Program-made: the position numbers and the translations under genes | Assembly: GCA_021234155.1 (NCBI GenBank) | Contig: JAJEKV010000014.1 | Span: 16,402,872 to 16,466,871 of the forward strand | Length of the DNA: 64,000 bases | Source of the DNA: Isoetes taiwanensis | Lineage: Eukaryota > Streptophyta > Lycopodiopsida > Isoetales > Isoetaceae | Direction of reading: 5' to 3' | The notes under the pieces: model-generated | What the model saw: the letters and a program-made list of their open reading frames with translations, nothing else | The model's database searches: none | Told to the model about the DNA's origin: nothing | In this document: piece by piece, positions 3,869 to 59,000 of the stretch | How positions within the stretch are numbered: position 1 is the first letter of the stretch | Layout: the number at the start of each line of letters is the position of its first letter

Positions 3869-4031
3869 AGGAGGAAGAGCCCCGGAGATGCCGGCAGGTC
3901 TGTCACATGGGCTGATGTTGCAGCCACAGCTGGGGATGTTGTTGTCCATGGGGAGGGACGATTTGATGTGCAGAGGGAAGTTGGGGAAGACTTGAACCGT
4001 GGGATTCTGAAATTGCTTCTCGCTGGCCGGT

Positions 4032-28363: not shown

Positions 28364-29047
28364 ATGACGGGCTCTTCAGCAAAACAGAGGCAGAAGACGA
28401 AACACGATTCTGGAGATGGCGACTTTGTTCTTACACAGGATGCCTGGGAACTGCTCATGAGTAAAATTTCCGTGCTAGATACCATCCAGGAAGAGGTGAA
28501 CAAGGTCCGAACTCTGCTGGATACAGTGGCTGCGCTCCAGTCCCGAGTCAAAATTCTTGAAGGTAAACTCGAGCTATTGGAATAGAACCACCAGGTACAA
28601 AATCAAACACCTTCTTCAGACTTAAAAATGGAAGTCCAAACGGTGTTGGCTGAGGAAAGGGACAGACACAAGAGAGCTATGAGAGTTCGAATAATTGGGG
28701 TGAATGAGACTCCAGAGGAAAAAACAAGGGAGATAACTATTCAATTCTGTCAAGAGCACTTGCAGATGGGCAAGCCCGACATCATTGATGCCTGGAGATC
28801 TGGCAGGAAGGTAGATGACAAGACTATACACATTCTAGTTAAATGTAGGGATGAAGCATCTCGAACAGAAATTCTCAGGCAGGGGCCAATGCTAAAGGGC
28901 AGCACTTATAGGTTGTGCGAAGATCTAACTTGGCAACAGTTGCAAGCTCGCCTGGAAGCTCTTCGACAAATCAAAGAAGCACGGGAAGCTGGGAAATGGG
29001 TCGTTTACAGAAATGGCCAGGTAATCATCCGAGATAAAAAGGAATAG
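28364..29047 (+). pseudogene. LINE ORF1 (RNA-binding, coiled-coil type) with one premature stop
   Basis: A single frame from ATG 28364 to TAG 29045 is interrupted only by TAG at 28583-28585. The first part is a coiled coil (VNKVRTLLDTVAALQSRVKILEGK). The second part contains RVRIIGVNETPEEKTREI and an EASRTEILRQGP block typical of the RRM-like domain of L1 ORF1 and transposase_22-type proteins. These proteins bind element RNA in the retrotransposition particle. The single nonsense codon suggests modest decay. Confidence 0.75.
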
Positions 29048-29050
29048 GGA

Positions 29051-31881: not shown

Positions 31882-32234
31882 TGTAAGATTCTAGGATTTG
31901 CCTCAGCAACATCAGGAGAACAATTCCAGCAATTACATGCATACCCGAGTCTTCTCCAACAACCCAATTCGTGTGAAGACTAGGATGGTCCAATTCAGCA
32001 GTCCTCCAGACTGTTTTGTTCAGCCTAATTCGGCAGGCCAGGCAGGCGATCTCCATCAGAATCCGATCTCCTCGGCTCAATCCTCCAATCTGACCTGTGA
32101 CTTCTCTCTCGCTCTGAGATGCCTCCTTTTCCCTTTTCCCTGTTTCTTTTCGGAGTCCTCTCTATCCTACTCACATGCCACATCATCACATATCTTCCAT
32201 TTCAATGGTGTGTGCAGGCTGTCATGTTCCTACA
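31882..32234 (-). repeat. Copia 3' LTR
   Basis: 353 bp; on the plus strand it begins TGTAAGATTCTAGG and ends CATGTTCCTACA. It is the partner of 35632-35984, at about 94% identity by eye. Confidence 0.95.
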
Positions 32235-32285: not shown

Positions 32286-35200
32286 CTACTTGTGCTTTGG
32301 AAGCCACAGTTTTGGTTCTGTTAAGACCTTAGTAAGCATATCTGCTTGTTGTGCCCTCGTGGAAATGTACAGAACATCAATTTCTCCTTTCTCTACTTCA
32401 TCCCGAATAAAGTGATGATGAATTTCAATGTGCTTCGTCCTAGAATGGCATGTTGGATTTCTACTCATTGCTACTCCACTTTTGTTGTCACAATACAAGG
32501 GCGTGGCATAATTCGTACGTGCATTACCAAGTTCTGTGAGCATTCTTCGCAGCCAAATAATTTCAGATGCTGCCAGAGAAACTGCTACATACTCTGCCTC
32601 TGCACTCGATTTGGACACACATTCTTGCTTTTTGCACCCCCATGATATAGCTGTGTCACCGAGCTTGCAAATATATCCTGATGTGGACTTTCTATCATCC
32701 AGGTCACCTCCCCAATCCGCATCCGCGAATTCTATCAGTTCAAGCTCTTTGTTTTGAGCAAAACAAATCCCATGATTCAATGTACCTTTCAGATATCTCA
32801 GAACCCTTTTAGCAGCTATCCAATGTTCTTTTCCTGGATCATTGTTGTACCGGCTGAGCAGGTTAATTGCATAGGAGATGTCTGGTTTTGTATTGTTTGC
32901 AATGTGTAATAATGTGCCTATCAATGCCATGTACGGCCTAGTTTTCATCTCTTGCCTTTCAAAGTCATTCTTGGGACTCATTCTGCCGCTGATCCTCACA
33001 CCTGGTGCAAGAGGCGTTTTTGAAGGATTGCAATCAACCAATCTAAATCGTGTCAAAGCTTTCCTGATGTTCTGCTCTTGAGTTAAATATAGCTCCCCCT
33101 TTTTCCTATTTCTTCTGACTTCCATACCCAATAATTTTTTGATGTCACCGAGATCCGACATTTGAAAACGCCTTTTCAGCACTGCCTTGCATCTTTCTAG
33201 GAAGGTTTTGTCACTGCTGGCTATGACGCAATCATCAACATAAAGTGCCAGGATCAAGCATTCATTTCCTTCTTTCCACATGTATAAATTACCTTCTGTT
33301 TTTAATTTCCTAAATCCAATAGAAATTAAAAACTGATTCATACATATATACCATTGCCTAGACGCTTGGCGTAAGCCATAGACTGCCTTCTTTAGCCTGC
33401 ATACCATGTTCTCTCCTTGCACATGCCCTTGAGGTTGCTCTATATAAATTTCTTCTTCAAGATCTCCATTTAAAAATGCCGTTTTTACATCCATATGATG
33501 TATTTCCATGTCATTCTGCACTGCTAATGCCATTAAGGCCCTTAAACTTGTTATTTTGACTATAGGTGAGAAAGTGTCCTTGTAATCTACACCTTCCTCC
33601 TGAGTATAACCTTTTGCCACCAAGCGAGCCTTGTATCTTTCGATTGAGCCATCAGCATTTCGTTTTATTTTAAAAAGCCATTTGCTGCCTACTACATTTT
33701 TACCCTTTGGCCGAGGTACTAGCTCATAGGTCTTTGTATCCTCAAACGATTTCAGCTCATTTTGCATAGCCTCTATCCATTTAGAAGCATCTGGCCCCAT
33801 CATGGTCTGTTCAACCGTTTTGGGTTCTACCACACATGATATCACCCTTGGTTTGGGCACTCTTTTCGTTCTACCATAGAGGTCAGTATCAAAGGGAAGT
33901 TCTGACTTAAGGCGATCTACCTCTCTGCGGCGAGTGTATCTCCCTCTCACTTCGTCCATACTGCTCTGACCTCCCTCTTCATGTGTCTCCTCACCTTCAT
34001 GCGCACTTTCCGGTGCACTGTCAGCTTCTGTAGCTTCATGCACCTCCTCATGCTCTACTTCCGGTGTATGCAGTGCACTATCGGCCTTTATGACCTCATG
34101 CACTTCATCCGACTCATCATCTGAATCATCATCTATGGTTACGGCTGGCTGCTCCACAATGTTCTCTTCTTCCTTCCCTATATCCACCTCCAAATATTCT
34201 TCTGGCATCCATTCTACTTCCTCTTGCTTCGTCAAGATTTTCCTATCTTTGTATAATATCTTCTCGTCAAACACTACATCCCTGCTAATATGCACTTTGC
34301 GACTTGCTGGGTCATACAATCTATACCCGTTCGATTCTTCGTCATACCCTACTAGAAAGGTGCAAATGCTCCGGTCATCTAGCTTTCTTCTTTTTTTCCT
34401 CTGGTACCAGCATATACGCCAAGCATCCAAAAACCCTCAGACGCTGCACAGATTGTTTGCGTCCTGTCCAAACTTCTTCAGGAACTGCTCCCTGTACTGC
34501 AATAGTTGGCAACCTGTTTTGCACATAGCAAGCAGCCGCCACTGCTTCACCCCACAAGTAATTCGGCAGCCCAGCATGCTTTAACATGCACCTAGCCGCA
34601 TCCATAATGGTGCGATTTTTGCGTTCGGCTACACCATTTTGCTGAGGAGTATAACCACACGTGTACTGTCTTCTAATCCCATGCATTCGACAAAATTTTA
34701 TAAATTCTCCTGATCTGTACTCACCTCCAAGGTCAGATCTCATACATTTTACATGAGATGATGTCTCTCTTTCTACTTCTGCAATATAAAGCTTAAAAGC
34801 ATCAAATACCTGATCCTTGGATCTTAGATAGTAGCACTTGGTGTGTCTACTGAAATCGTCAATAAATGTGGCAAAATAATATTTTGCACCAAGGCTCTGC
34901 ACCTGCATTGGTCCACATACATCTGAATGTACTAAGGCCAGCAGCTCATCTGCATGTCTACCTTTATTTCTAAAGGGTAGCCTGCTTTGCTTCCCCAGCA
35001 TGCAAGATCACACACGCCATGCTCTTCATTATCAAAGTTCAATCCATCCAGCAATCCATGTTTTTTGGCTATTATAATGCTATTGTAATTCACATGTGCC
35101 AAGCGCAGATGCCAAGTATATATCATCCAGAGCAGAAACTTTATTAATGACATCTAGGTTCAATTCAAACAGATTTCCATTCCTTTGAGCATCAAATATC

Positions 35201-37938: not shown

Positions 37939-38180
<242 letters not shown>

Positions 38181-38352
38181 AAATCTCGAATTTTGGGACT
38201 CAGACTGAAAATGGGACTCATACTATAGAAAAAAAAAATTCTGAATTGAATGCTTGAATAGAATTACACATCACAAACAAAGAATTGGGTGTATTGTTTT
38301 CCTCATAAATTTTACAAACCACTAGTTGAGAAAGTTTTCAAGCTTCTCAATA

Positions 38353-40535
38353 TTATCTACCCTCATACAATGATATAGCATGGAGGTTGCTCATGGCTTT
38401 GTCCATCTCCCTTTTTGGGATCTTGTGTGTCTTGTCCTTTGCAATGTGACAAGTTGGATATGACCATACCACATACTCCACCAATTCCCTCCTTTGAGGA
38501 TCAGCATGATTTGCCCTCCACTTCTTCTCCCAGCAGTTGGTGTATTGCTCATTCAAGTTGCCCTTCTTGTGTCTTCCAATGGGCTCCCAATATTGAACTT
38601 GAAATCCAGGACGCAACTCCTCTCCATCAGCCATGGTGGTGGTTACATCAGAGAGTGCCACCCCTAATCATATTGGACAATCCTCATCGTCAGGCCTTAC
38701 TAGCACAACGTATCCTTCCTTGATGTCCTCGAAGGGATCCCACTCAGGAAGATCAAACCACTTTGGCTTTAAGGCCTTACTTCCCACAAACCACTTGGAA
38801 CCATTGTTAGGACCCAAGTAAACTTTCTTAGAAGTGCTTGCTCCTTGAGAACCCTCCCATCTGGACTCTGGTAAGAACCCGTCTCTCAGCTTCCCCCACA
38901 TGGTTGTTCAGTTTCTAAGCATGTCACAACTTTCTCCCAGTAATTGATTAGGGAGTCCATGTGATTTTCTTCAGAGTGGAGGTGCGCTTTCCATTTCGAA
39001 CATCATCCCAATGAGTTATATAATCATTGATGCCCTTCACTAGTTGGCTAGAGTCTTTAACAGTCTTGAAGGGAGTGGTTTTGACTGCCCTTTAGGAATA
39101 AGAATTTCACCTGTAGCACCGCGTTGCCACAACTCGATTCCTTGTACAGGCATCCACAACTTGTCACCTGGTCTCCACTTATATTGCATGATCGGTATTC
39201 CATCCCTAACCCAAAACTTGAACTGAAGTGGCTTTGTGTGTCCTGTCAACTGATCCTTACCATCTAGCAAGTATCCCTCGACAAACGATTTCCAATCTGC
39301 AACCTCATCCATCAAGAAAGCCATTGGGTTTGGGGTCAATGCAGCTCTCAAACACATCCATTAGTTCAGGGAGACTAGTCACATTTTCTCTCTTGAGCTT
39401 GGTAGAGAAAGTTCCGAAGAATGCATCTATATCATCATGCATATGCCCAACCATCATGAACCCCACTTTCACAACTTTGAATACTCCCACTGTTGTCAAG
39501 TATGACATTGCCCCAAACATCCATCTATTCTTGTTTTCTTTCTAACAGTTGTCCAATTGAACACATAACTCCTCTGGCAGTTGTTTCTCAAGTAAGGGGA
39601 AATCATCCCAAGTCCTCTTTGATTCTTTGGACACCTTGGATGTGAGATCTTTTATCTGCCATTGGTAACAAAGCGGTTGATCATCCATCAAAGCCTCAAA
39701 AATGGGGGCTGATGGAGAATACCCCCCTTACTTCTATCGATCCTTTCTCTAGTGTTCTCAAGCACTTGAAAATAGAGCTCACATGGAAGTTTGGTCATCC
39801 CTCCATAGATCAAGCACAAAATGACCATAGGTTCCAGTTCCATGCTCATGTGTTAAGACACCCGCCAGACTTACTTTCATCTAAAAAGCGTTTTGACAAC
39901 GCTTGGGCAAAGGATCTAGCTTTGGCAATAAAATCTTGTGTTGGTCCATCTTATCATGAATTATACACAAAAATCTGTCAGGCTGCATCTGTAAAAATGT
40001 TCTCCACTGTCAATACAACTGTCGACATGATATTTGGTCCCTTTGGTGATCTGCAAATTGCTCCCTAATTGCCATTCTTTCTTTCTCTATTGCAGTTGAT
40101 GCAAGTGTATCCTTGAGTTGAATACAAGTGTTGCACTTTGAGAATGGCATGTGTTGCAGGACACTCACGTCTGAGAAGTGAGTGCTCCATAACTTGCTGA
40201 AATGTGATTGAGAAAGAGGCCGACCTCCAGTAGTTTCTAGGATGGAGTTGACCTCTTTAAAGCACTCTTTTTGGATGTAATGTTGTGGCAACACCTTGCA
40301 CATTGTGCTCGTTCACCTTCGACGTGTGGGGCACAGATTGAGACATGTATCTCACAAAGCTCTCGAAGACTGCAATGGCCCTCAAAGTATTTGCTCTAGG
40401 TTTCAAAGTCAGTGCATTGCCATGTTGGAACAACCTGTGCCCTTTTTTGACCTGCTCCCAGTATCTGTAAAATGATGACTTGCTCACGCCAAGAATCCAT
40501 CTCAATGCTCTCATACATACCTTTAGGCCCCTCAA
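38353..40535 (-). pseudogene. Transposase-like protein with DUF7869-type core, decayed
   Basis: Read leftwards from 40535: GVSKSSFYRYWEQVKKGHRL; then after a frame change SQSHFSKLWSTHFSDVSV with FSKCNTCIQLKDTL (a C-x2-C pair); then after an unrelated interval LPEELCVQLDNC, a TAG stop, KENKNRWMFGAMSYL and VGFMMVGHMHDDIDAFF. The pair D-N...E-N-K-N and G-H-x-H-D/E-D-I-D is the hallmark of the DUF7869 family, proteins common in transposons of plants and other eukaryotes. Further fragments continue to 38353 (GFQVQYWEPIGR, WRPGDKLWMPVQ). At least one stop and several frame changes make it non-functional. It lies inside the putative TIR-bounded segment and could be its former transposase. Confidence 0.7.
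39712..40009 (+). other. Unrecognised open frame inside the decayed transposase region
   Basis: A plus-strand frame (ENTPLTSIDPFSSVLKHLK, FHAHVLRHPPDLLSSKKRF, AWAKDLALAIKSCVGPSYH) opens where the DUF7869 reading has no recognisable sequence. It has protein-like composition on the strand opposite to the surrounding gene, and may be a fragment of another element inserted here. No family recognised. Confidence 0.3.
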
Positions 40536-40752
40536 TTGATATAGTAACCTTCCTGTGTTTTCATCATAGTTGGAATTCTACACAAGGAGTAGATGAAATT
40601 AATCCTATCTTTGTGAAGTTGTCCAATGTATTGGGACCTTATCTACACGAGATCATCCACACTGTACTGGACTGTGCAATCTAGGTTGCAACACTCTTGT
40701 CCCCTAATTGCCTCTAGGTTTTCTTTGGTTGGGGCCATACTTTCCATCCTTT

Positions 40753-41310
40753 CTAAATATTTGTCACTTCTAGCCCTCTTGGGCACCCTTGGCTGCCTTT
40801 TATGAAAAATATAGTCTTCCTTGTGATCAAAGGATGCTCATCCACCACCAAATCTTCCACATGGCCTGGGGTGGGCCTTGGGGTATGTAGTTCAGTAGGG
40901 CCTTCAAGGTTCTCACCATTCTTGTGTGTAATATATCTAATTGGCCATCTTAACTGAGTTTGGGACTCCAACAACCCAGAGCACACAATGCAATCACTAG
41001 AGCTTCCCTGGAAGATGATTGTATCAACTTGGATAAGAAGCTTCCCAATGCCAACTCCAAGATGATCATCTCCCAGCCTTTGATCATTCACACTATCAAA
41101 AGCATCAACTGCAGTTATGATGCCCTCTGCAAATACAGTCTTGTTGCAAGGGTGCAACAATAAGCAGGCCATCTTCCTCCATTGGAGCCTAGGGCATTGT
41201 CCTGTGCTGGGCTTCCTTGGCTCCATTTTGCTCCTTTCACATGCTCCCTGAATGGAAGAGCACACATTAAAACCATATAGCCATATTAAATATAAACCAT
41301 ATAAAACCAT
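40753..41310 (-). pseudogene. DUF8039-like transposon protein fragment
   Basis: A 185-codon frame. Its central block, FAEGIITAVDAFDSVNDQRL, then GDDHLGVGIGKLLIQVD, then RWPIRYIT, follows the pattern of the plant transposon-associated DUF8039 domain (VAxG..., LG...V.V, WP), as I remember it. Its C-terminal part is ordinary linker. It lies directly upstream of, and on the same strand as, the DUF7869 fragments, so it may be the 5' part of the same gene. Confidence 0.45.
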
Positions 41311-41645
41311 ACAACCATATTAAATATAAACCATATAACCATATAAAACCATTAACCATTTATACCATTAACCATTAACCATTAACCATTAACCATATAT
41401 AACCATATAACCATAAACCATAAACCATATAACCATTAACCATATATAACCATTAACCTTTAACATTATTTTATACTAACCACTAACCATTAACCATTAA
41501 CCATATATAACCATATAACCATTAACCATATATAACCATTAACCTTTAACATTATTTTATACTTTTAGGTAACCATATAACCATTAACCATTTATACCAT
41601 TAACCATTAACCATTTAATCATTAATCATTTTAACCATTAATCAT
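41275..41645. repeat. AT-rich minisatellite of ACCATTA/ACCATATA units
   Basis: Long runs of AACCATT (7-bp period) alternate with ACCATATAA. The period equals that of plant telomere repeats, but the unit is not CCCTAAA. No coding potential. Confidence 0.9.
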
Positions 41646-41692
41646 TAATCATTTTAACTTTCAATATTTTGTCCTGGCCACTCAACGACTGA

Positions 41693-41708
41693 TGACGTGG
41701 CCACGTCA
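41693..41708. promoter_or_regulatory. Palindromic bZIP-type site TGACGTGGCCACGTCA
   Basis: A perfect 16-bp palindrome made of two inverted TGACGTGG C/G-hybrid boxes. A third GCCACGTCACGG (about 41721) and an ACACGTGAG G-box-like site (about 41747) follow within 60 bp. Clusters like this are typical bZIP (for example ABF/HY5-type) targets. Which transcript they serve is unclear. Confidence 0.45.
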
Positions 41709-42239
41709 GCATTCCGCACTGCCACGTCACGGAAGGCATGGCCCACACGTGAGAGAGATTAATTATGGCACTTTTACGAGGTTCGAGGGTGCAGCCAGAA
41801 ATAACTGCACTCTCTTCCTCTTCCTCCCCGACCATTCTTCCTCCCCTGTTTTCTCTGCTTCCTATTTTCTCTAAGCACTCTCGAGTTCCCATCAGGCGAT
41901 CGACCGACCTGATCAATTCCGGCGCGATCTTATGGCAGTAGCCTGGTTGACCGATCGCGACGCATTCCAGCGCCGAGGTTTTCGCGCAGTTAGAGCGCTC
42001 GAGCGGCCGTTATTGCCTAAGAAGAAAGTGAGGTTCCTTTCAGTAAGTTTTTAGCTCAATTTCTTACAGTTTTTAGTTCCTTTGTAATATTTACATTATT
42101 TCCATTATTCCTTTGTAGTGCTTAGAGGACTTACTAACCCCTGATACAATTTCCAGCACGACAAATCCCTATTCTCGCTTTGCAAGTGCCTATGCGACCA
42201 AGGAATAAAAAATGGAAGCTGCCTCTTCATCCAACAAAT

Positions 42240-42480
42240 CTGCCAGGTACCTTCTTTCTTTATCTTCCCTGTTTTTTTATTGTTTTGCTCTTTTTCACAT
42301 TTTTTCACTATTTCATGTTCTAATCTATATATGTTCTCTGCTTTTGTTTAGTTTTCTGTTTTTGTTTTCTGCTTTTGTTTTGTTTTCTGTTTCTGTTTTT
42401 GTTTTGTTTTGTTTTGTTTTGTTTTCTGTTTTTGTTTTGTTTTCTGTTTTTGTTTTTGTTTTGTTTTGATTTTGTACAGG
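42240..42480. repeat. T-rich low-complexity tract with TTTTG repeats
   Basis: Repeated TTTTGTTTTCTG units. A GTACCT donor-like site at its left and TTTGTACAG at its right make it look like an intron, but the joined reading ends after 14 codons. Confidence 0.8.
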
Positions 42481-42755
42481 CATAAGTAAGACTAAGGGCA
42501 AGCAACCAAATTAGGAATCATCCAGAGACATGTGATAGGATGTAAAAAAATGCATAGCACTAACAAAAGAACATAAGTATGAATGTTTCATAACAGAAAT
42601 TCCATAACAAAAGAAAGAACTATGAATGTTTCATTGCATAGAGCATTTTTAACTCCTATTTTAATCTTTCAGTTGTAGTGACTTAAAGCATTGCGTTCTT
42701 CTGTTCTAACTCACAGAACATCCACCCTTGCAGGAAAGGTGCAGACTACACCCTA

Positions 42756-43065
42756 CATTCTCGACTCGCGAGTCGAGAATGCCTCAGCCATCCGACACGT
42801 TTTTTCTCTACTAAAGACTCGATAATGCCGTAGTTACAGGCGTTTGTGTGCATTCTCGACTCGCGAGTCGAGAATGCCTAAGCCAGCCAACACTCCATGA
42901 AGTACTAAGTAGTCCCTGGAGTACTTCATGGAGTGTTGGCTTAGGCATTCTCGACTCGCGAAGTCGAGAATGCGCATGAAGGCAACACGTTTTTCTCCAC
43001 TTTCGAGTCGAGAATGCTATAGCCGTGACGACCAAGTTGCATTCTCGACTCGCAAGTCGAGAATG
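42756..43065. repeat. Cluster of CTCGACTCGCGAGTCGAG palindromes, part of a larger inverted repeat
   Basis: Copies at 42756-42781 and 42851-42876 (perfect, 26 bp with CATT...AATG flanks), 42946-42972 (one inserted base) and 43040-43065 (one mismatch), plus half-sites at about 42810 and 43002. The copies at 42851 and 42946 are the outer parts of a ~55-bp inverted repeat (42851-42906 with 42920-42972) around a 13-base loop. Confidence 0.92.
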
Positions 43066-43092
43066 CCTTAGCCAGCCAATTCTCATGTATCT

Positions 43093-44230
43093 GGTCGCAG
43101 GTGCCTCGACCCAGTCAGAGCCACTCTCCTTCGGACCATCTTCCTCGAATATTGCGAAGGGGAGGGGCTCAGACTGGGTGGAGGCCTCTGCAACTAACTA
43201 CAGGGAAATGCATCCTTAAGGCCAGCATCCTTAAGGCGCGCTGGCCATTTTCTCGACTCGTGAGTCGAGAAGACCCGCTAGTCTCACACACAGCAATGCC
43301 AGGACCTTACAGGCCACGCCCGCCCTTGACCCTCCCAATCTCGAGTGCATTCTTCTGTTTTGAGTCGCAGGTGCCTCTACCCAGTCAGAGCCACTCTCCT
43401 TCAAAACATCTTCCTCGAATATTGCGAAGGGGAGGGGCTCGGACTGGGTGGAGGCCTCTGCAACTGATCACAGGAAAATGCATTTGAACTGCATCCCTAA
43501 CGAGCGCTGGGGGCTTTCTCGACTCGCGAGTCGAGAAGGCCCGTGAGTCTCGACACCGCCCAAGGTCGAGTGCATTCTCTTGTTTTTAGTCCCAGGTGCC
43601 TCTAGCCTGTCTGAGCCACTCTCCTTCGAACCATCTTCCTTAAATATTGCGAAGGGGAGTGGCTCGGACTGGGTGGAGGCCTCTCTGACTAACCACAGGG
43701 GAAGGCATTTGAACTCCATCACTGAGGAGCGCAAGGGGCTTTCTCGACTCGCGAGTCGAGAAGGCCCGTGAGTCTCGACATCCTCGAGGCCCTAGACCTA
43801 GAATGATCTATACACATCTAGCATGCCTAACAGATACTCGGATCGGATGGAGCCCTTTGCTTCTAAACAGAATGGAATCCATTCCAAGCAAAAGTACAGA
43901 TACATCGCGAGTTGCTCCGATTTATTGTTTCCTTGCTGAGCATCTCTCAACCCAGAGAGCATCTCGACGCTGAAATATGCTCAACAAGAAAACCATAAAT
44001 CAGGCGAGCTTTTGAACAGCTCCACGATCTAAACAGGTCTAGCATGCCTAATAGAAACTCAGACTGGGTGGAGCCCTTTGCTTCTAAACACAAGGGAGCT
44101 GTTCGCGAGTTACACCGATCTATTGTTTCCTTGGCAAGCATCTCTCAACCCAGAGAGTATATTTCATCTCTCGACGCTGAAATATGCTCGACAAGGAAAC
44201 AATAAATCGGTCGAGCTTTCGAGCAGTTCC
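43093..44230. repeat. Tandem array of about five ~225-bp units upstream of the ParB-like gene
   Basis: Units start near 43093, 43364, 43589, 43812 and 44034. The first three share CAGGTGCCTC and AGACTGGGTGGAGGCC and each carries a CTCGACTCG(C/T)GAGTCGAG palindrome (43250-43271, 43516-43537, 43741-43762). The last two are diverged: they share GGTGGAGCCCTTTGCTTCTA and instead carry TTGTTTCCTTG inverted repeats. Each of the first three also folds on itself (CCCAGTCAGAGCCACTCTCC against GGGGAGGGGCTCAGACTGGG). On the minus strand the units read EASTQSEPLPFAIFEEDG, so they could derive from a repeated exon. Confidence 0.75.
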
Positions 44231-44292
44231 ATGTTCTATACACATCTGGCATGTTCTACACACATAATGAAACAGGCATCTCTGAAACTCAC

Positions 44293-44594
44293 CTCTTCTC
44301 GCAAGAACTCCTTGGGCCATTGTATCACAGATCCCGCAGCCTCTCCGAGAGTCGTCGCTTCTTCTGTTGGCCTCATCAACAATGCATCTGCATCAAATAC
44401 TTGTATCAAAGCGATTCTCGGGTATCCCTTCTCCATGGCGCTGCAGTGAAGAGTGCCCGTATCCTGCAGCTCATCTCTGGTTGCTACCTTCGCCCCATGC
44501 ACATCGATCAAATCAACTAGTTTCAAGAAGACACACAGTTAGAACTAGACAGAGAGTAAATCGCTGTTAGGAGCTTACAGCGTCGTGGCGCCAT
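44293..44594 (-). CDS. Start of a DUF8039-like gene, two exons, divergent to the ParB-like gene
   Basis: Exon 44579-44594 (MAPRR plus one base) joins exon 44293-44516 through a GTAAGC donor and an ACTAG acceptor, in phase, giving 80 codons that end at a GTGAGT donor. The product begins MAPRRFDLIDVHGAKVATRD and includes RIALIQVFDADALLM and ATTLGEAAGSVIQWPKEF. The alternation of VA, V-x-V, LGEA and WPK resembles the DUF8039 domain of plant transposon proteins. The next exon was not found; it would lie in or beyond the tandem array to the left. The gene starts about 318 bp from the ParB-like gene, on the opposite strand, so the two probably share a promoter region. Confidence 0.5.
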
Positions 44595-44912
44595 GCGTGA
44601 ACTCGTTCACAATCTATCTCCGCCTCCGGTTGCTATGCGCCCGAAAGTCTCCACTGCCGCTATAAAACTATGCGCCCGAAAATCTCCACTGCGCTCACTA
44701 TACTTAGTCCCTGTAAATGAATCAATTTCAAATTGGTGTTTGGGCGGGCTAAAGTGGGCCGTGCTGTACCCTTAGCCCGCTTTTTTGCCTTGAATAATTA
44801 TTTGTCCTTAATTTCAAATTTAAGAACACGCCGGACCCTTTTTACGTGCAGTCCCAAAATCTCGAAGGCCCGGAAGAGACTCAGTTTACAAGGGAATTCG
44901 AGCAGCAAGTGG
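44595..44912. promoter_or_regulatory. Short divergent intergenic region between two opposite genes
   Basis: 318 bp separate the ATG of the minus-strand DUF8039-like gene and that of the plus-strand ParB-like gene. It contains a doubled phrase with ATGCGCCCGAAA(A/G)TCTCCACTG at about 44635-44695. No TATA box is convincing. It is inferred to be a bidirectional promoter. Confidence 0.4.
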
Positions 44913-47900
44913 ATGCAGGGGCACACTGAGATGACGACTCCATCGAAGAAGCGGGCCGCCGGAGCGGATGCGGGTTCTATCGGAACCAAGAAAAGAAAGA
45001 CAGGGACTCCAGGTGAGCTCTCAATGTTTATTCGATCCATCGACCTTTTCTGATTCATCTTCTTGTCTTGCAGCATTTATGGCAGAGACGCTAGTGATCA
45101 CTGCTAGAACTTCATTCTTCGTTATCGAAGGATTGGAGACAGAGCTACTTGAAACACCCGCAGATTCCTGGTGGTATATCGAAGTTCACACCTATGGCAA
45201 GGAGAAAGATCTTTTCCTGTGGCAAAGGGATGAAAAGAGTTCCGGCGACAAGTACAAGAAGGTCGGTGTGGTGCTCTCCGTTTCTGCGCCAGATTCAAAA
45301 CATCTCATATTGTATGTGGAAGATTGCCTGAAAGGTAAGTTCTATCACACGAAGAAGTTATCTGTATCCAATTATTCTTCCACTTCAATGAGCAAGGCCA
45401 AGGGGACCGATAAAAGGTCGGCGCCTTTAAATTGTCAGAACCTTGGCTGGAAGGATCTGGAAGGGATAAAGGAGGCCGGAACCCTGACATCTAGGGAGCT
45501 CGGAATGGAGATTTCCAGGGCGAGGGAGAAGCTATTCAACACCGAGAACTTTACGTCCAACGTGCTGAAGACTCTAAAGCACTCTACAGTCATTAAGGAT
45601 GTAGTTCAGAAAGAGAAATCTCCAGAAGGGACTGCAAGTCAGGATGTAGAAGAAAGTACACGGGGAGATTCAGATGCTGATGAAGAGGATGAATTGGTCG
45701 ATTCCCAATCTTAGATCCAGATGAGCAGATAAGGAAATCACAGAGAGGGGCCCAGAAGATGGAGCAGCTGGCTCAGTATTATCCATTGGGAATTGGACAC
45801 AAGTTGCTGCTGGACATAAGACGCTTGAAGGTTTGCACTGGCGATGTCGTCTTGTTCAACCACAGGGAATTTAATCTCACACACATGCTAGAGATTCTGA
45901 ACCTGATGGTGCGTCATCCTATTGCGGATCCAATGCTTGCGGATGTCATACCATTCAGCAGATCGACCGGTGAGTTATTCAGGTGGACCACCGAGGAAGA
46001 CCTGAAGGGAAAAGACGTCAGGTTTTGGGTTGTGGACGGCCAGCATTCAGTGAGGGCAGCACAAATATTGCAGACGGGAAAGGAAGTGTTGCAAAGGATC
46101 AAGGACCGGTATTCCAAACGAGAGTGCAGAGTTCTCTCAGCGGACACGCCGCCAACGGAGCTTTCCAGCGTTAGCCACTGTCAAAATACAATAGCAGCAA
46201 GTGCCAGCTACATAAGGTAAATTACTGTCTCTGATTCGGGGCCATTATCGACTCGCGAGTTGAGAAAGCCCAGAGGAATAAAGGAAACTAGAGGATGCGG
46301 GAGCTTTCTCGACTCGCGAGTCGAGAAAGCCAGAGGCAAAATGGGAAGAAGAGGATGAAGGGGCTTTCTCGACTCGCGAGTCGAGAAAGTCCCTTGAATC
46401 CTCTGCTTTCCTATGCTCCACTGACTTTCTCGACTCGCGAGTCGAGAAACCCCAGGGTAATAGAGAAAACATTAGAGATTAATGGTTGAAGAGTGAAAGC
46501 ATTGAGCCTTCCCAATCTTTCTTTCCCCGCCTCTTTGGGCAATGTAGCTTAGTTTATATCCTAAGTTGCATCGTTCAAAGAGGCGTGAAAGCAAAGATTT
46601 AGGAATGCGCGATATTTTCACTCTGGCCTTCACTCTCCTTCTCTATTCTCTCCTCTCCTGTGGGTATTCTCGACTCGCGAGTCGAGAAAGCCCCTACATC
46701 CTCCTATTTCTTGTTTCCTTCGGGGTTTACGATGCACTTTCATGCTCTGACATAGTTTCATTTAATTGATTGCAGCCCGTATCCTGACCAGATCATACAC
46801 GCTCGGCAACAGTGGAAAGCATTGGGTTGTCCTCAGCGTCCTAAAGGAAACAGGGCTCCCTCGGATAAGTGGAAGACCTTCGAGAAACTTTGCAGATATG
46901 TTCTTCTGGAAGGCCAGGAAGATGATGAGGGAGATGATGAAGATGAGAAGAAGAAGAGAACACCAAGAAAGGGCAGGGAATCTCTATCTGACCAATATGA
47001 CCTCATTCTCTGCACTGAGGCGATCTGGGAGAAATGGACTGAGATATGGGCTCTTTGGACAAGAGGCAAGCTTAAGGACAACAATGGAGAATTGCCAACC
47101 AGGCCGGACCCAAAGTTGTTCGACAAGCAATTCATGAAAAGGATACAGGGCCTGACGGACAAAGAAACGCTTGATCTACAGGGCAAAATCCTGGATGGAA
47201 CAATCCTGCTAAGGAAAACTAGAAGTTCAAAAATGCAGGACGCAAAGGATTATGCCACAATCCTAAAGAGACGGCGTGCGTTGGAAAAAGGCATCACGGA
47301 GTTTTGCAATGTTGCATCTAATGCATGCTATGATTTTGATTATTATAAGGAGAAGGCTGCGCTTGATGAGGAAGACATGAAGGAGTTGAACCGTCTATGT
47401 CAACCCTACATCAACACGAAGCTAAAGCATAACGTCAAAACCCTCCCCTTCCCTGAACGTGCTATGGCACTTCTGAAGAGGAAGCTTGGATTTGGGGTGG
47501 TCCCATTTAAGACCGACGATAACTCCCCTCTATTCCTGGTAACCTTGGGACATAAGGGATTTGGTGGTCTGGAACTGGCGGCAGGGCCCGTGGCACTATT
47601 TGCCATGAATATGATCGAAGACCCCACCCTATTTTATAAAAAAGCTGACATTGAGCAGTGGTACAAGACGTGTCTGGACATGACCGAGCTGGATACTTTC
47701 AGTTTCCTTATCTTTTGCATGCCGGGCAATCAGACAACTGCTGTGTCACAATGGGCAGCTGATATTAACTTCACCAACAGGATCTTGTATTCCATATACG
47801 AATTGGAACATGAGTGCAGAATTGGCCAGCTGAAGACATCAAGTTTTGCCAATATAGTTTTGGTTATGGTTTCAAGATCGAATGCAGACCTCTGGACAAG

Positions 47901-49283
47901 TGGTGGTCTAGCGAGCACCACTATCTCGATAAGTTCATGATTTCTCAAGAGCATATGGAACCCTCGAAGGGCGGCAGATTTATGGAGGATGTGCCATTGA
48001 TTGACAAAGTCAGCACTGATGGTGCGATAGGTCCAATACATAGAATTCCTATCCGGCCAAGAGTTATCAAGTACTTCATAACCAGCTTGGTCGAGGAAGA
48101 TCATATTGTATGCGAGTGGTACATGAACGGCCTATTCTCTCAGGGGGCTATGCTGTATGGAATGAAACCAATATCCGTGGTTGGGAATAAGGACATGGTT
48201 GAAACCATTCGATCATACCTGGACTTGCTTCATGAGCATTTCAAAGAGAGGAAGACAGCTGGAAGCAGTAAGGACGATGATGACGAAGACAAACCTGACA
48301 GCCAGGGAGAGAAAGATGACGGAGATGTCCAAGGTTTAGACGAGAATGTTGCGGAACAAATTTTGGAGAATCTGAGATTGAGGTGAGTTCACTTTGCTCT
48401 CGGAGTGTTTCTCGACTCACGAGTCGAGAAACCTCCGAGTCTTTAACTTTTTCCTTTCTCGACTTGTGAGTCGAGAACCTCGTTTCGTAACTGACGTCTT
48501 TCATCATTCCAGGGACATCGAGCGCAACCAATCCGGATCATTGACACTATCACAGGGATCTGCTGGCGGTTCAGTTCATGAGGAGGATACTGCATCCAAA
48601 AAAGGCAGGCAAGAGCAAGTCAGTGCAGACAGCAAGAAAGGACCTGGAAGAATAATGATCCCGCATATGGATCCCGATCAAGAGGAAATATGGTCAGAGC
48701 CAAACTCTAACTGGGATCCAGATGGGCCCACCAAGCTTATAATATTTGACGACAATGGAGTATTGGCTGCAATATACCACGATAAAGACGTCCCTGAGCT
48801 TAACACCTCGCAGATGCCGACAAAAGTGGGGTCTAAAATCGTGTATCCTCGGCCTAAAGCAAAAGAAATTATTGAGTGGTGCCTGCAACGGGGATTTGAA
48901 GTGGCCATATGGTCTTGTATGGCAAAGAAAAATGTTGTCAATGTCCTTGGTGTTCTCGGCCTTCCAGTTTTGAAGTTCAAGTTGAAAGGGTCGAGCATGT
49001 GTCAGACTCGATCCAGCCATCACAAAGGGGAAGCCTATTATGGTGAAAAGGCTGGATAGGGTTTATGAAGCATACCAAGACTTTAACAAACACAACACCA
49101 GAAGAGTATGAAACGGATAGGTGGTTGTCTTTCAATCTCGTTCCTGTGTTGGCGGAATCCCTGTTTGCCATTCTTGTGGCCGATGTGATTAGGAGCTATC
49201 CGAACCTCAAGCAGGTCGATCCAGAGAGCAGAGCGGTCATGAAAGCTATGGACGACAAATATTATGGTGATCAAGAAGAGTGA
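44913..49283 (+). CDS. Multi-exon gene: ParB-like motif + degenerate DNA methyltransferase-like region + FCP1/NLI-type HAD domain
   Basis: Proposed exons: 44913-45012, 45074-45334, 45715-46216, 46776-48382, 48513-49283, all with GT-AG borders; the intron with GTAAGT at 45335 keeps the frame. An N-terminal basic stretch (KKRAAGAD, GTKKRKTG) looks like a nuclear signal. Exon 3 holds FWVVDGQHSVRAAQIL, the ParB-type DGxHRxxAA core with Ser in place of Arg. Exon 4 contains FSFLIFCMPGNQ and, near its end, DHIVCEWYMNGLFSQGAM, which occupies the place of the DPFxGSGTT SAM motif of N4/N6 DNA methylases; no DPPY/NPPY is seen, so catalysis is doubtful. Exon 5 has KLIIFDDNGVLAAIYHD and VYPRPKAKEIIEWCL with AIWSCMAKKN, as in plant NLI/FCP1-like HAD phosphatases. 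Frame slips are needed near 47815, 49000 and 49090. The gene is either slightly decayed or contains assembly indels. Domain calls are by motif memory. Confidence 0.6.
46217..46775 (+). other. Intron carrying five palindromes
   Basis: Copies at 46247-46266 (degenerate), 46303-46330 (28 bp, perfect, GC...GC flanks), 46364-46389, 46426-46449 and 46667-46688, in an intron of 559 bp. The first four are spaced about 57-62 bp apart, close to regular, while the unique sequence between them differs. Flanking bases around the 22-bp core differ, but stay self-complementary. Confidence 0.9.
48383..48512 (+). other. 130-bp intron carrying two palindromes
   Basis: Between a GTGAGT donor and TCATTCCAG acceptor lie 48407-48432 (perfect 26-bp outer arms with AC/GT asymmetry at the centre, extended by CTCGGAG and CTCCGAG flanks) and 48456-48477 (two changes). 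About half of the intron is hairpin-forming. Confidence 0.9.
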
Positions 49284-49389
49284 CCTCTGCTTTCAGATAG
49301 CAAAGTTGTGTGAATCTTGTAAAGAAACGGGAATGTCGGTTCTATTGCTGTCGCAATAGAACCGTGGCATTGTACCTATTCAATTTATT

Positions 49390-49395
49390 AATAAA
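49390..49395 (+). terminator. Candidate poly(A) signal of the ParB-like gene
   Basis: AATAAA about 105 bp after the last stop codon. A degenerate palindrome copy (TTCTCGACTCGCTATCCGAG) follows at 49466-49487. Confidence 0.45.
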
Positions 49396-49620
49396 AATTC
49401 TTTTTCAACTAGAACTTTGGTTTCAATCTGTAATGAATTTCCTTTGTTTGAGTGTATTGTTCTTGTTCTCGACTCGCTATCCGAGAAAACTGGGAGAAAG
49501 CTTGGACCCACAATAAGAGACAAATATTCGAATTATGGACAGTTTTCGAGTCGGAGTAATTTTCCCATCTCCTTTTTGTGTAAAATAACAAGGTTCCGAA
49601 AAAAAGTGGGAATGGAATGA

Positions 49621-49644
49621 GACCCACTTTAATTAAATACGACT
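49621..49644 (-). repeat. Right 24-bp terminal inverted repeat of the putative 11.5-kb element
   Basis: GACCCACTTTAATTAAAT followed by ACGACT is the reverse complement of 38157-38180 with one mismatch. Confidence 0.75.
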
Positions 49645-49645
49645 T

Positions 49646-49730
49646 TAGATAGGTGAATCGTGGGGGAAAAGATCGCAAAAAAGTAAAGAAAACTTAAAAT
49701 TTTAAGGAATGACACATGTGAAGACAGACA
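49646..49730 (+). repeat. Right copy of the 85-bp direct repeat
   Basis: Gapless match to 37939-38023, starting one base after the inverted terminus and ending GAAGACAGACA. It is followed by an AACAGACAGACAG run instead of GATA units. Confidence 0.8.
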
Positions 49731-54577: not shown

Positions 54578-54919
54578 CCTGGTAGTCGTCTGAACAAAGT
54601 TTCCTAGATGCCTCCAAAGGAAATTGGGCGCCCCCCAATTTCGTTGGAGTTGCGAGAAAATGGAAATACAGACTGTCACAAATATAATTAATCCAACACA
54701 AATAAAAGTAATTGAACACACTCACCCCGGTTTTTGGTCCACTGTTGAAAACATCAGTTTTGGTAGGTCTATATGTCCTGTTTTCAAAGAATCCTACATG
54801 TGGATTTGTGGAGGTATGGTTTTGTTCGATAATGGTGTTCTTTTTTCAGTGGACTAAAACATCCACTGTTGTTTTGTAGTTTCTTCTATTGTGACATGTC
54901 ATTTTATAATACAATCCAC

Positions 54920-55250
54920 TGTAGGAAAGAATACTTGAATTTCTACATATCTAATAATTCTATTGTCACATGTCTTTATAGATGTAGGAAAGAATATTTG
55001 ATTCTCTACATGTCCTATACTTCCATTCACATGTCTTTATAGTAGTAGGACAGAGTACTTTATTTACTAAGGCATTGTAGGAAAGAATACATGAATTACG
55101 ACATGTGTAATACTTCTATTGTCACATGTCTTTATAGAAGTAGGAAAGAATACTTGATTCTCTACATGTCCTATCCTTCCATATCACGGGTCTTTATAGT
55201 GGTAGGACAGAGTACTTGATTTGCTACATGTGATGCACGTGCACGATCAC
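54920..55250. repeat. Degenerate tandem array, about 61-bp period, about six units
   Basis: GTAGGAAAGAATACTTGA or GTAGGACAGAGTACTT alternates with CACATGTCTTTATAG at about 54922, 54984, 55045, 55078, 55141 and 55201. Confidence 0.8.
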
Positions 55251-55309
55251 ATGTCCTTATACTAGTATTCCATGTAAGACAAGTTACTTCAACTACTTCA
55301 ATTACTTAA

Positions 55310-55815
55310 CGCCTATTTTTGCATAACAAAACCATCAAGAATTTTATTTGTATTCCTTGAGGGGGTGCAGGACCGCTGCAACAAATCCCTAAGCATTAAT
55401 GTCATAGGACCACGCAAAATCCTAACAATATCCTAACATTTTGGATATTGTTAAAGAAAGACCATTAAACCACGCCTACATTTTTGCATAACAAACCATT
55501 AAGAATTGTGAGATTTATTTCTTTATGGAGGAAAGGATCATTGCAACAAATCCCCAAGCATTAAAATGGCAAGACCATGCAATATCCTAACATTATTCCC
55601 CCATTTTGGATATCGTTGGTGGAACACCATTAAACCGTTCCTACATCTTGGTATAATTTAGACCATTAAGAATTTGAGATGTAATTGTTTATGGGGAATA
55701 GGACCATTGCAACAAATCCCCAAGCATTATAAAATGGCAAGACTACGCAATATCCTAACATTATCCCCCCATTTTGGATATCATTAGTGGAACACCATTA
55801 AACCATGCCTATATC
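55310..55815. repeat. Three tandem copies of a 165-bp unit
   Basis: Units anchored at 55321, 55486 and 55651 share GCAACAAATCCCCAAGCATTA, AATATCCTAACATTATC and CATTTTGGATATC. A weaker two-copy repeat (CCAATGGTTCTTTGAAAAAC) follows at 55895-56035, right before the satellite. Confidence 0.85.
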
Positions 55816-56034
55816 TAGTTGGTACTAAGGTTCGCTATAGACGATCCAATAGTTATCCACGTCATCCAATGGTTTTAATTGTATCTAATTTATCTTATCC
55901 AATGGTTCTTTCTAAGAATGCAATGGTTCTTTGAAAAACAATATAACTTATTGCACTTAGACGATTTGCACTAAGAATCCAATGGTTCTTTGAAAAACAA
56001 GATAACTTATTGCACTGAGACGATTTGCAATCCA

Positions 56035-59000
56035 ATGGCGAAGTCAAATCTCCATTCCGGAGCCTTTGTACTGCCCGAACGACAAAACACTTGGGTTTCT
56101 ACACGGTCGACTGCAGGACAATTTGCGGTTTGATATGTTCTCCCGGACAGATCTTGAATTTTTTTGAGCGTGCTCAAAGCAAGTTACTTGAATGGAGAAT
56201 TCAAACTGGCCGGATAGGAAAACCGGGTTCAGGAAGGGAGGCATTGGCATTTGCCCTCCCGGAGGAGCACCGTAGGAAAGCCCGCCTCGGTAAATCCAAA
56301 TCCCATTTCGCCGATTTTTATTGCTTCTTGTTTTCAACTGCAGGCTTTCGACCATGTCTCAAGTACAACGGAATAAAACTTCGACCTCCATAACGTAAAC
56401 CCTACAATAATCTAGCAACGCATACGGGGTTTACGTTTTTGGAGGCCATACCCTAGTCGATTGGACCAGGATCTTGCACAATGTCATGAGGTAGTGGGGG
56501 CGTTGACGCCGTAAGACGCGAGCCCTAAAACCTTCGAAGAAGTTCGACCCAACGGTCCTCTCGGAAGTCCTCGGCCACCTGGACGGGCAACTCTCCCACC
56601 CCGAACCGTGATCCGACTCGCCAACGGACTCAAACATCGACATTACCCCGGAGACCAAGTTTCGCGGAGCGAAGACCACCTGCTCCAAGAAGCCAAAGTA
56701 GCTCATGTCCAACACGTTCAGAGTGAATTGGCCTTAGCGGAGGGTGCGGGAATACCGCCATGTAGAGGGTTAGGGTTGTTTTTTTGCTGCAAAAAATGAT
56801 CAGATAACTTGGTCCCTAGGGTAATTTCGCTGTTTCGGACGACATGGCTAAGTCAAATCTCCATTCCGAGCCCTTTGTACCTGCCCGAACGACAAAACAC
56901 TTGGGTTTCTACACCGGCCGACCGCAGGGCACTTTGGCGGTTTGATATGTTCTCTTGGGACAGATCTTGAATTTTTTGAGCCTGCTCGCCGAAGCAAGTT
57001 ACTTGAATGGAGAATTCAGCGGCCGGATAGGAAACCGGTTAGGGAAGGGAGGCATTGGCATTTGCCCTCCCGGGAGGAGCACCGTAGGGAAAAGCCCCGC
57101 CTTTGTAAATCCAAACCCCATTTCCGGGATATTTTATTGCTTCTTGTTTTCTTTAACTGCAGCTTCGACCATGTCTCAATGCAACTGAATAAAACTTCGA
57201 CCTCCATAACGTAAACCCTACAATAACCTAGCAACGCATTGTGGTTTACGCTTTTGGAGGCCATACCCTAGTCGATTGGACCGGGATCTTGCACAATGTC
57301 ATGAGGTAGTGGGAGGGCGTTGATGCCGTAAGATTCGGAGCCCTAAAACCTTCCGTAAGAAGTCCGACCCAAAGGTCCTCTCTCGAAGGTCCCCGCCACG
57401 GACGGGCAACTCTCCCACCCCCGAACGGGCGGATCCGACCGCCAACGGACTCGAAACATCGACATTACCCGGAGACCAAGTTTTCGCGGAGCGTAAGACC
57501 ACCCCGCCCAGAAGCCAAAGTAGCTCATGTCCAACACGTTCAGAGTGAATTGGCCTTAGCGGAGGGTGCGAATACCGCCATGTAGAGGGTTCGTGTTTCT
57601 TTTGCAAAAAAATGACTGTATGACTTGGTCCCTAGGGTAATTTCATTTGTTTGGACGACATGGCTAAGTCAAATCTCCATTAGAGCCTTTGTACTTGCCC
57701 GAACGACAAAACACTTGGGTTTCTACACTGGCCGATCGTAGGGCACTTTGCGGTTTGATATGTTCTCGGGACGGATCTTGAATTTTTTGAGCCTCGCTTT
57801 CAAGCAAGTTACTTGAATGGAGAATTCAACGGCCGGATAGGAAAACCGGGTTCGGGAAGGGAGGCATTGGCATTTGCCCTCCGGAGGAGCACGGTAGGAA
57901 AGCCCTGCCTCGGTAAATCCAAAACCCCATTTCGCCGGGTTTCTATTGCTTCTTGTTTTCAACTGCGGCTTCTTCGACCATGTCTCAAGTGCAATCGAAT
58001 AAAACTTCGACCTCCATAACGTAAACCCTACAATAACCTAGCAACGCACAGGGTTTACGTTTTGGAGGCCATACCCTAGTCAGATTGGACCAGGATCTTG
58101 CACAATGTCGTGAGGTAGTGGGAGGGCGTTGATGCCAGAAGACGGAGCCCTAAAACCTTCCAGAAGAAGTTCGACCCAAAGGTCCTCTCTCGGAAGGTCC
58201 CCGCCACGGGACGGGCAACTCTCCCACCACCGCGTGGATTTGACTCGTCAGCGGTTCGAAACATCGACATTACCCCGGAGACCAAGTTTCGGAGCGTAAG
58301 ACCACCCCGCTCGAGCGCCAAAGTAGCTCATGTCCAACACGTTCAGAGTGAATTGGCCTTAGCGGAGGGTGCGAATACCGCCATGTAGAGGGTTCGTGTT
58401 TCTTTGCTGCAAAAAATGACCGCGGTAACTTGGTCCCTAGGGTAATTTCATTTGTTTTGGACGACATGGCGAAGTCAAATCTCCATTCCGAGAGCCTTTT
58501 TGTACTCGCCCGACCGACAAAACACTTGGGTTTTACACGGCCGACCGCAGACACTTTGCGGTTTGATATGTTCTCCCGGACAGATCTTGAATTTTTTTGA
58601 GCCTGCTCGAAGCAAGTTACTTGAATGGAGAATTCAACGGTCGGATAGGAAAACCGGGTTCCGGGAAGGGAGGCATTGGCATTTGCCCTCCCGGAGGAGC
58701 ACTGGTAGGAAAGCCTGCCTCGGTAAATCCAAACCCCATTTCGTCAGTTTCTATTGCTTCTTGTTTTCAACTGCAGCTTCTCGACCATGTCTCAAGTGCA
58801 ACTGAATAAAACTCGACCTCCATAACGTAAACCCTACAATAACCTAGCAACGCACATGGTTTACGTTTTGGAGGCCATACCCTAGTCAGATTGGACCAGG
58901 ATCTTGCACAATGTCATGAGGTAGTGGGAGGGCGTTGATGCCAGAAGACGGAGCCCTAAAACCTTCCAGAAGAAGTTCGACCCAAAGGTCCTCTCTGGAA

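What the first reader, a model, noticed from the sequence alone, without database searches (positions are those of the whole stretch)
42756..49487. Family of about fifteen near-identical palindromes (CTCGACTCGCGAGTCGAG core) confined to one gene neighbourhood
Seen: copies at 42756, 42851, 42946, 43040, 43250, 43516, 43741, 46247, 46303, 46364, 46426, 46667, 48407, 48456 and 49466, all in introns, upstream DNA or just after the ParB-like gene. Flanking bases change, yet arms stay complementary (ATTC/GAAT, GCTTT/AAAGC, GTTTC/GAAAC), meaning compensated variation or repeated local copying. Hypothesis: they are parS-like binding sites for the adjacent ParB-like protein, or a micro-mobile hairpin. 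Several CpGs and TCGA/TCGCGA sites also make them possible methylation targets.
Basis: partly seen in the sequence, partly recalled or inferred. Interest (0 to 1): 0.87.

Follow-up and report, generated by a model that had tools for sequence, protein, structure and literature searches.

The report
Palindrome arrays inside a quillwort transposon
The repeated 22-letter palindromes belong to a large, abundant jumping gene in what is probably a quillwort genome, and they look like docking sites for one of the jumping gene's own proteins.

Summary
The palindromes are real: 15 copies with at most 3 mismatches, none expected, plus one with an inserted base. They are not confined to this neighbourhood: the 20-base core occurs 3,786 times in the 1.66-Gb genome, the reversed control 0 times. 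They are parts of a TIR DNA transposon, window 38156-49645, with 25-bp inverted repeats and 4-bp target-site duplications in 4 of 4 elements tested. Other copies show a minus-strand DUF7869 gene and a plus-strand accessory gene ending in an NIF phosphatase domain. No profile supports 'ParB'. In 30 copies, 0 of 173 cores lie in coding-aligned sequence. Intron-1 arrays hold 1-8 cores, often 60 bp apart. Two gene-free ~4-kb relatives hold cores beside host-gene fragments. Best reading: binding-site arrays for a dimeric element-encoded protein, working like the VANC motif arrays of Arabidopsis VANDAL transposons. Location is shown; binding is inferred. parS, compensated flanks and a self-mobile hairpin are not supported. 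Assembly size matches Isoetes taiwanensis.

The parts
38156..49645 (.). TIR DNA transposon (whole element; this copy is decayed)
   Evidence: Ends fixed by alignment with other copies at 38157 and 49645: left end in L040, L043, L051; right end in L003-L005, L039-L044, L048, L052. Left end moved by one base to 38156 after comparing the inverted repeats and duplications
38156..38180 (+). left terminal inverted repeat, family form AAGTCGYATTTAATTAAARTGGGWC (first base T in this copy)
   Evidence: a 19-mer from it occurs 1328 (+) and 1354 (-) times genome-wide, reversed control 0
49621..49645 (-). right terminal inverted repeat
38152..38155 (.). target-site duplication TAGA, left copy (part of a GATA microsatellite, so weak on its own)
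49646..49649 (.). target-site duplication TAGA, right copy
38353..41319 (-). transposase-like gene, several exons or broken frames
   Evidence: ORFs; DUF7869 E 4.9e-22 on the corresponding stretch of copy L051; two of the window's own ORFs (40010-40312, 40753-41319) gave no Pfam match
42756..43767 (.). intergenic palindrome array: cores at 42758, 42853, 42945-42973 (one inserted base), 42993, 43042, 43250, 43516, 43741 and a remnant at 42804
44931..45012 (+). accessory gene, exon 1 (inferred model)
   Evidence: GT-AG intron 45013-45073 splices in frame
45074..46216 (+). accessory gene, exon 2, with the DGQHS stretch called ParB-like; frame broken near 45.7 kb in this copy
   Evidence: one open frame across that place in L009, L023, L032
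46217..46775 (+). intron with cores at 46245, 46306, 46366, 46427, 46667 (called intron 1 in the text)
46776..48382 (+). accessory gene, exon 3; frame broken near 47.9 kb in this copy; open throughout in L011, L016, L021, L023, L030; open but for a stop in the first codons in L014, L025, L026
48383..48512 (+). intron with cores at 48409 and 48456 (called intron 2 in the text)
48513..49283 (+). accessory gene, exon 4, NIF (FCP1/SCP-like) phosphatase domain; broken in this copy
   Evidence: window copy alone E 0.056, below cut-off; NIF in 6 of 6 other copies, best E 1.5e-10; frames
49466..49487 (.). degenerate core about 160 bp from the right end

Best explanation
The palindromes are a 22-bp dyad-symmetric motif (TTCTCGACTCGCGAGTCGAGAA) of the non-coding parts of an 11.5-12-kb TIR transposon family and of its ~4-kb non-autonomous relatives. 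Shown: location, copy number, a well-defined core, absence from coding sequence, arrays of varying size. Inferred: a homodimeric protein made by the element, most likely the NIF-domain accessory protein and second the transposase, binds them, and the arrays mark the element's own copies for that protein, to activate, de-silence or assemble them for transposition. This is the logic of VANC motif arrays in Arabidopsis VANDAL transposons. The arrays grow by tandem and inverted duplication, which would explain the nested hairpins.
For: 3,786 exact 20-mers, reversed control 0. 110 accessory-exon matches, from 107 scored of 5,057 candidates. 12 of 12 core-first loci contain the transposon. 22 of 29 listed core clusters on contigs C1-C76 lie within 13 kb of an exact outward TIR against about 0.02 expected per cluster. 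0 of 173 cores in 86.6 kb of coding-aligned DNA, 173 in 37.0 kb of other DNA. Between cores of one copy, core identity is 0.93 and best-orientation flank identity 0.40 (488 pairs; cores were chosen by similarity). In two slots fixed by exon borders (25 copies, not chosen by core), core identity is 0.970 and 0.910 at non-CpG sites against 0.833 outside, and 0.878 and 0.780 at CpG sites against 0.668 outside. Intron 1 varies 218-1128 bp with 1-8 cores in the 22 of 30 copies with both borders found; 39 of 80 spacings are 59-62 bp. Cores are present in two elements without a match to either gene. VANC precedent: motif arrays in introns, intergenic and terminal regions with gain and loss of repeats (PMC5735166, passages).
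Against: No binding data. No DNA-binding domain recognised in the accessory protein: only sub-threshold matches such as DUF7135 (7 of 10 members, best E 0.003), DUF6371 (4 of 7, best 0.0062) and one stray PriA_3primeBD (E 0.11); no solved structure; structure prediction unavailable. Conservation in the fixed slots is modest: core 1 ranks 14th of 275 windows, behind windows at the exon 3/intron junction, and core 2 ranks 59th. Only 6 of 10 short and 5 of 10 long TIR-bounded intervals on C1-C76 contain an exact core (decayed cores not counted). Unlike the 9-base YAGTATTAY, this motif is a long, CpG-rich palindrome. No single copy was shown to have the whole accessory gene open.
Confidence: 0.6

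Rival explanations
1. Transposase-binding sites: the cores are internal and subterminal repeats that the DUF7869 transposase needs to assemble the ends, like the repeated TNPA sites of En/Spm (recalled). This overlaps with the best explanation, which names the transposase as second candidate.
For: Cores persist in two non-autonomous elements that share little else with the full element; a degenerate core (3-6 mismatches) sits about 150-190 bp from the right end in the window, L040, L042, L043, L044, L048, L050 and L052.
Against: In full-length copies most cores are kilobases from the ends and in introns of the accessory gene; the core nearest the end is degenerate.
Confidence: 0.2
2. Neutral by-product: palindromic DNA is duplicated by replication template switching at hairpins, and the cores have no function.
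For: Nested inverted duplications with cores at ends and axis; at least five intron-2 copies have deletions ending inside a core; conservation in the fixed slots is modest.
Against: 0 of 173 cores in coding-aligned DNA; core more conserved than its surroundings in unascertained slots; in L038, L041 and L044, whose exon-3 DNA differs from the window's by about 15-21%, cores other than the one that led there also have 0-2 mismatches, beside some remnants with 5-6.
Confidence: 0.17
3. A micro-mobile hairpin that spreads on its own.
For: Same core beside unrelated flanks; thousands of copies.
Against: 12 of 12 core-first loci are transposon DNA; no precise empty sites in 25 intron-2 alignments.
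Confidence: 0.03
4. parS-like centromere sites for a true ParB.
For: Palindrome and a DGQHSVRAA stretch in the neighbouring protein (resemblance recalled).
Against: No ParB profile match; plant nuclear transposon.
Confidence: 0.03

Closest known systems
VANDAL21 / VANC anti-silencing system (Arabidopsis; PMC5735166 passages, PMC10398659 abstract)
   Same: Short motif at high density in introns, intergenic and terminal non-coding DNA of one transposon family; gain and loss through repeats; a second, non-transposase gene in the element.
   Different: Motif is 9 bases and arrayed in one orientation there, a 22-bp palindrome here; VANDALs are Mutator-type with a longer duplication (recalled); no VANC sequence was compared; no methylation or binding data here.
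Sola2 DNA transposons (PMC3627910, passages)
   Same: TIRs and 4-bp target-site duplications.
   Different: The duplications there are AT-rich (AWWT and similar); three of four here hold one G or C. The relation of the DUF7869 protein to Sola2 transposases was not tested.
Pack-type gene-capturing TIR transposons such as Pack-MULEs (recalled)
   Same: Non-autonomous copies carry host gene pieces: an aspartyl-protease fragment in L040 and an AP2 domain in L043.
   Different: Different transposase family; only two elements examined; capture is inferred from position between the TIRs.
DNA transposons encoding a TET/JBP dioxygenase in fungi (PMC12730594, search listing and start of abstract only)
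   Same: DNA transposon with an extra gene that may act on silencing.
   Different: There an enzyme on methylcytosine; here an NIF phosphatase domain and motif arrays.
bacterial parS/ParB (recalled)
   Same: Palindromic site near a gene with a DGQH-type stretch.
   Different: No ParB profile match, eukaryotic transposon.

Membership tests
cut-and-paste TIR DNA transposon | terminal inverted repeats with fixed ends in independent copies | tested here: met
cut-and-paste TIR DNA transposon | target-site duplication of constant length | tested here: met
   TAGA (window), TTAT (L040), ATCT (L043), CTAT (L051/L052): 4 of 4 elements with both ends in hand; the window's lies in a GATA microsatellite
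cut-and-paste TIR DNA transposon | DDE-type transposase | tested here: inconclusive
   DUF7869 match E 4.9e-22 in L051; that this domain is a DDE transposase is recalled
Sola2 | AT-rich 4-bp TSD | tested here: inconclusive
   length met, AT-richness only partly: three of four hold one G or C; criterion from PMC3627910
Sola2 | Sola2 transposase homology | not tested
   no Sola2 reference sequence was compared
VANDAL/VANC | motif arrays in non-coding DNA of the element | tested here: met
   0 of 173 cores in coding-aligned DNA of 30 copies
VANDAL/VANC | VANC protein homology | not tested
   no VANC sequence was compared; Pfam scans of exons 2-4 gave only NIF above its cut-off
VANDAL/VANC | motif binding and loss of DNA methylation | not testable with these tools
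   needs experiments
Pack-type element | host gene fragment between the TIRs of a non-autonomous copy | tested here: met
   2 of 2 complete short elements in hand, L040 and L043
ParB-parS | ParB domain | tested here: not met
   Pfam and NCBIfam scans; a fold-level test could not be run
ParB-parS | site bound by the adjacent protein | not testable with these tools
   needs gel shift or DAP-seq
self-mobile palindrome | copies outside any host element | tested here: not met
   0 of 12 core-first loci lacked the transposon; 12 of 29 listed clusters, all on low-numbered contigs

The most novel reading that the evidence does not exclude
A lycophyte DUF7869 transposon has independently evolved a VANC-like self-recognition system: a dimeric accessory protein with a CTD-phosphatase-like domain reads CpG-rich 22-bp palindromes in non-coding DNA of the family's members, including gene-capturing ~4-kb relatives, and lifts silencing or promotes transcription there, perhaps by acting on RNA polymerase.
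Probability: 0.25. Interest if true: 0.82.

Novelty: new variant of a known kind. Interest (0 to 1): 0.62.

Why it matters
It would be another case, outside flowering plants and in a different transposon type, of a transposon filling its introns and spacers with docking sites for its own protein, with about 3,800 exact sites in one genome. That would make convergence in transposon counter-silencing directly testable. It also describes a large multi-gene transposon in a lycophyte-like genome with an NIF-domain accessory gene for which three protein searches found little: none for the joined gene or exon 3, two distant NIF proteins for exon 4; only the 7,999 and 8,000 candidates sharing most words were scored.

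Tried and rejected
Compensated evolution of the arms: not supported. RNA structure: intron-1 and upstream arrays fold far better than shuffles on both strands (z -14.9 to -26.5; 100 shuffles for the intron, 20 for the upstream stretch), but G-U against A-C mismatches in the larger hairpins, some of which overlap, are 42 to 28, too weak to favour one strand. Hairpin-tip breakage: partial cores pile up near half length, but the scan's minimum length favours that, so it was dropped. Two viral contigs share a 16-mer of the core beside tRNA-like sequence (by eye) and look unrelated. The exact 22-mer was absent from viral contigs and the exact 20-mer from genome contigs; exon 3 had no relative in viral contigs. 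CpG decay: 61 of 125 substitutions in 173 cores are CpG transitions, which suggests methylation, but the cores were chosen by similarity. The centre of the second intron-2 core is T in 12 of 25 copies, in line with a subfamily (by eye), which argues against homogenisation between slots. Literature, listings only: core strings (7 papers, none about this by title), DUF7869 (0 papers), palindromic and subterminal transposon terms with lycophyte, Isoetes with transposon terms, Sola and gene-capture terms, ParB with transposon: no report of this element was seen there.
Full report
OBSERVATION. The core is a 22-bp perfect dyad, TTCTCGACTCGCGAGTCGAGAA. In the window, 15 matches with up to 3 mismatches to its inner 18 bases lie at 42760-49485; 0 were expected. 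One more copy has an inserted base. Matches with up to 6 mismatches to the 22-mer (16) are found only in the same region. Its remark on arms holds for 10 of 16 window copies, which have complementary arms longer than 11 bp.

GENOME-WIDE. The genome (G000) has 1,658,258,908 bases in 1,110 contigs. TCTCGACTCGCGAGTCGAGA occurs 3,786 times; the reversed string, equally palindromic and of the same composition, occurs 0 times. The published Isoetes taiwanensis assembly has 1658.30 Mb in 204 scaffolds and 909 contigs, 1,113 pieces (PMC8566536, passages). The species is therefore an inference.

THE CARRIER IS A TRANSPOSON. Exon 3 of the plus-strand gene has 110 matches in the genome at 70-100% identity, from 107 scored of 5,057 candidates, so a lower bound. 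Alignment with other copies gives ends at 38157 and 49645. There the sequence reads as a 25-bp terminal inverted repeat, which moves the left end to 38156. Four of four elements with both ends in hand have perfect 4-bp duplications: TAGA, TTAT, ATCT, CTAT; the window's own lies in a GATA microsatellite and is weak alone. A 19-mer from the TIR occurs 1,328 and 1,354 times on the two strands, control 0.

GENES. The minus-strand gene at 38.3-41.3 kb matches DUF7869 in copy L051 (E 4.9e-22); two of its ORFs in the window gave no Pfam match. The plus-strand ORFs between 44.9 and 49.3 kb are one gene (exons 44931-45012, 45074-46216, 46776-48382, 48513-49283), broken in the window by several small changes. 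In other copies the later part of exon 2 (L009, L023, L032), exon 3 (L011, L016, L021, L023, L030) and exon 4 (six copies) are open; no single copy was shown open throughout, and exon 1 was not checked elsewhere. The last exon matches the NIF phosphatase family in 6 of 6 copies (best E 1.5e-10). The 'ParB-like' stretch matches no ParB model; only sub-threshold matches to DUF6371 and DUF6551 appear. A profile of exon 4 finds two distant NIF proteins; searches with the joined gene and with exon 3 found none. No solved structure matches the three exon profiles.

WHERE THE CORES SIT. In 30 fetched copies (the best 30 matches, 4.1 kb each), 173 cores with up to 4 mismatches were found, 87 exact. 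All 30 have at least one. None of the 173 lies in the 86.6 kb that aligns to exons; all lie in the remaining 37.0 kb. Further stretches of full-length copies show an intergenic array (10 matches with up to 3 mismatches in L051) and a 3' array (three in L048, 127 and 125 bp apart) that the window copy lacks. Intron 1 ranges from 218 to 1,128 bp with 1 to 8 cores in the 22 of 30 copies where both borders were found; 39 of 80 spacings are 59-62 bp and 17 are 235-245 bp.

NON-AUTONOMOUS RELATIVES. L040 and L043 hold complete elements of about 3.9 and 3.7 kb with the TIRs and cores but no blastn match to either gene. They carry pieces of an aspartyl-protease gene (TAXi_N, E 3.4e-17) and an AP2-domain gene (E 4.3e-10), which I read as gene capture. 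Both were reached through an exact core. On contigs C1-C76, from the two listings, 6 of 10 short (under 6 kb) and 5 of 10 longer TIR-bounded intervals contain an exact core, against about 0.009 expected for 4 kb; 22 of 29 core clusters lie within 13 kb of an exact outward TIR, against about 0.02 expected per cluster. One of the seven misses, C73, is L043, whose TIR differs from the pattern by one base.

CONSERVATION. Information content is 1.37-2.00 bits at the 22 core positions; outside it is 0.81 bit at the first base to the left and 1.49, 0.51, 0.92, 1.03 at the first four to the right, then low (cores were selected by similarity). So the core is well defined but has a shoulder on the right. 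In the two intron-2 slots, set by exon borders and not by the core, 25 copies give mean pairwise identity 0.937 and 0.863 in the cores, 0.715 between them and 0.83-0.85 elsewhere. Split by site, non-CpG is 0.970 and 0.910 against 0.833 outside, CpG 0.878 and 0.780 against 0.668 outside. The effect is clear for slot 1 and modest for slot 2, and windows at the exon 3 junction are as conserved. At least five copies have lost part of a core by imprecise deletion (L010, L018, L021, L026, L033; by eye).

HOW IT MOST LIKELY WORKS. Shown: a family-specific, dyad-symmetric motif in non-coding DNA of autonomous-type and non-autonomous members, with arrays of varying size. Inferred: a symmetric protein reads it. 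The element's accessory protein is the first candidate because the arrays crowd its gene; the transposase is second. Dense arrays in introns and spacers match the VANC system (PMC5735166, passages), where motif density directs an element-encoded protein that causes loss of DNA methylation. The nested hairpins fit inverted duplication around a palindrome (46305-46449 has a core at its axis).

VERDICT. The specific interpretations (parS, micro-mobile hairpin, compensated arms) are not supported; the general idea of a binding site for the neighbouring protein remains best. As a system it is a new variant of a known kind, pending binding data.

Noticed in passing
L040:1954-5883 and L043:4030-7718: Non-autonomous elements of the family carry fragments of host genes (aspartyl protease, AP2): apparent Pack-type gene capture.
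   Followed up: partly
window 37951-38023 and 49658-49730: 73-bp direct repeats at 85% identity lie just outside the two ends of the transposon, beside a GATA microsatellite; the element may have inserted into a tandem repeat.
   Followed up: partly
window 42750-44250 and 46217-46775: Hierarchical palindromes: hairpins of about 80-320 bp whose ends and sometimes axis are the 22-bp cores; predicted folds are 15-27 standard deviations better than shuffles.
   Followed up: partly
window 3695-5248: Overlapping ORFs whose look (by recall) suggests a replication-initiator or replitron-like gene; the one scanned (4643-5248) had no Pfam match.
   Followed up: no
window 28586-31894 and 32286-35007: A LINE-like element (by eye; weak Exo_endo_phos_2 match) and a Copia polyprotein (RVT_2, E 1.4e-74).
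   Followed up: partly
window 54880-64000: Degenerate tandem repeats (54880-55816 by self-comparison; the rest judged by eye from repeated ORFs), probably satellite-like.
   Followed up: no
L051:2980-3531: Extra DNA inside one transposon copy with an ORF resembling (by eye) a LINE tail, no Pfam match: probably a nested insertion.
   Followed up: no
G000 contig C100, 46493-71188: Eight exact TIR 19-mers within 25 kb: a dense nest of elements of this family.
   Followed up: no
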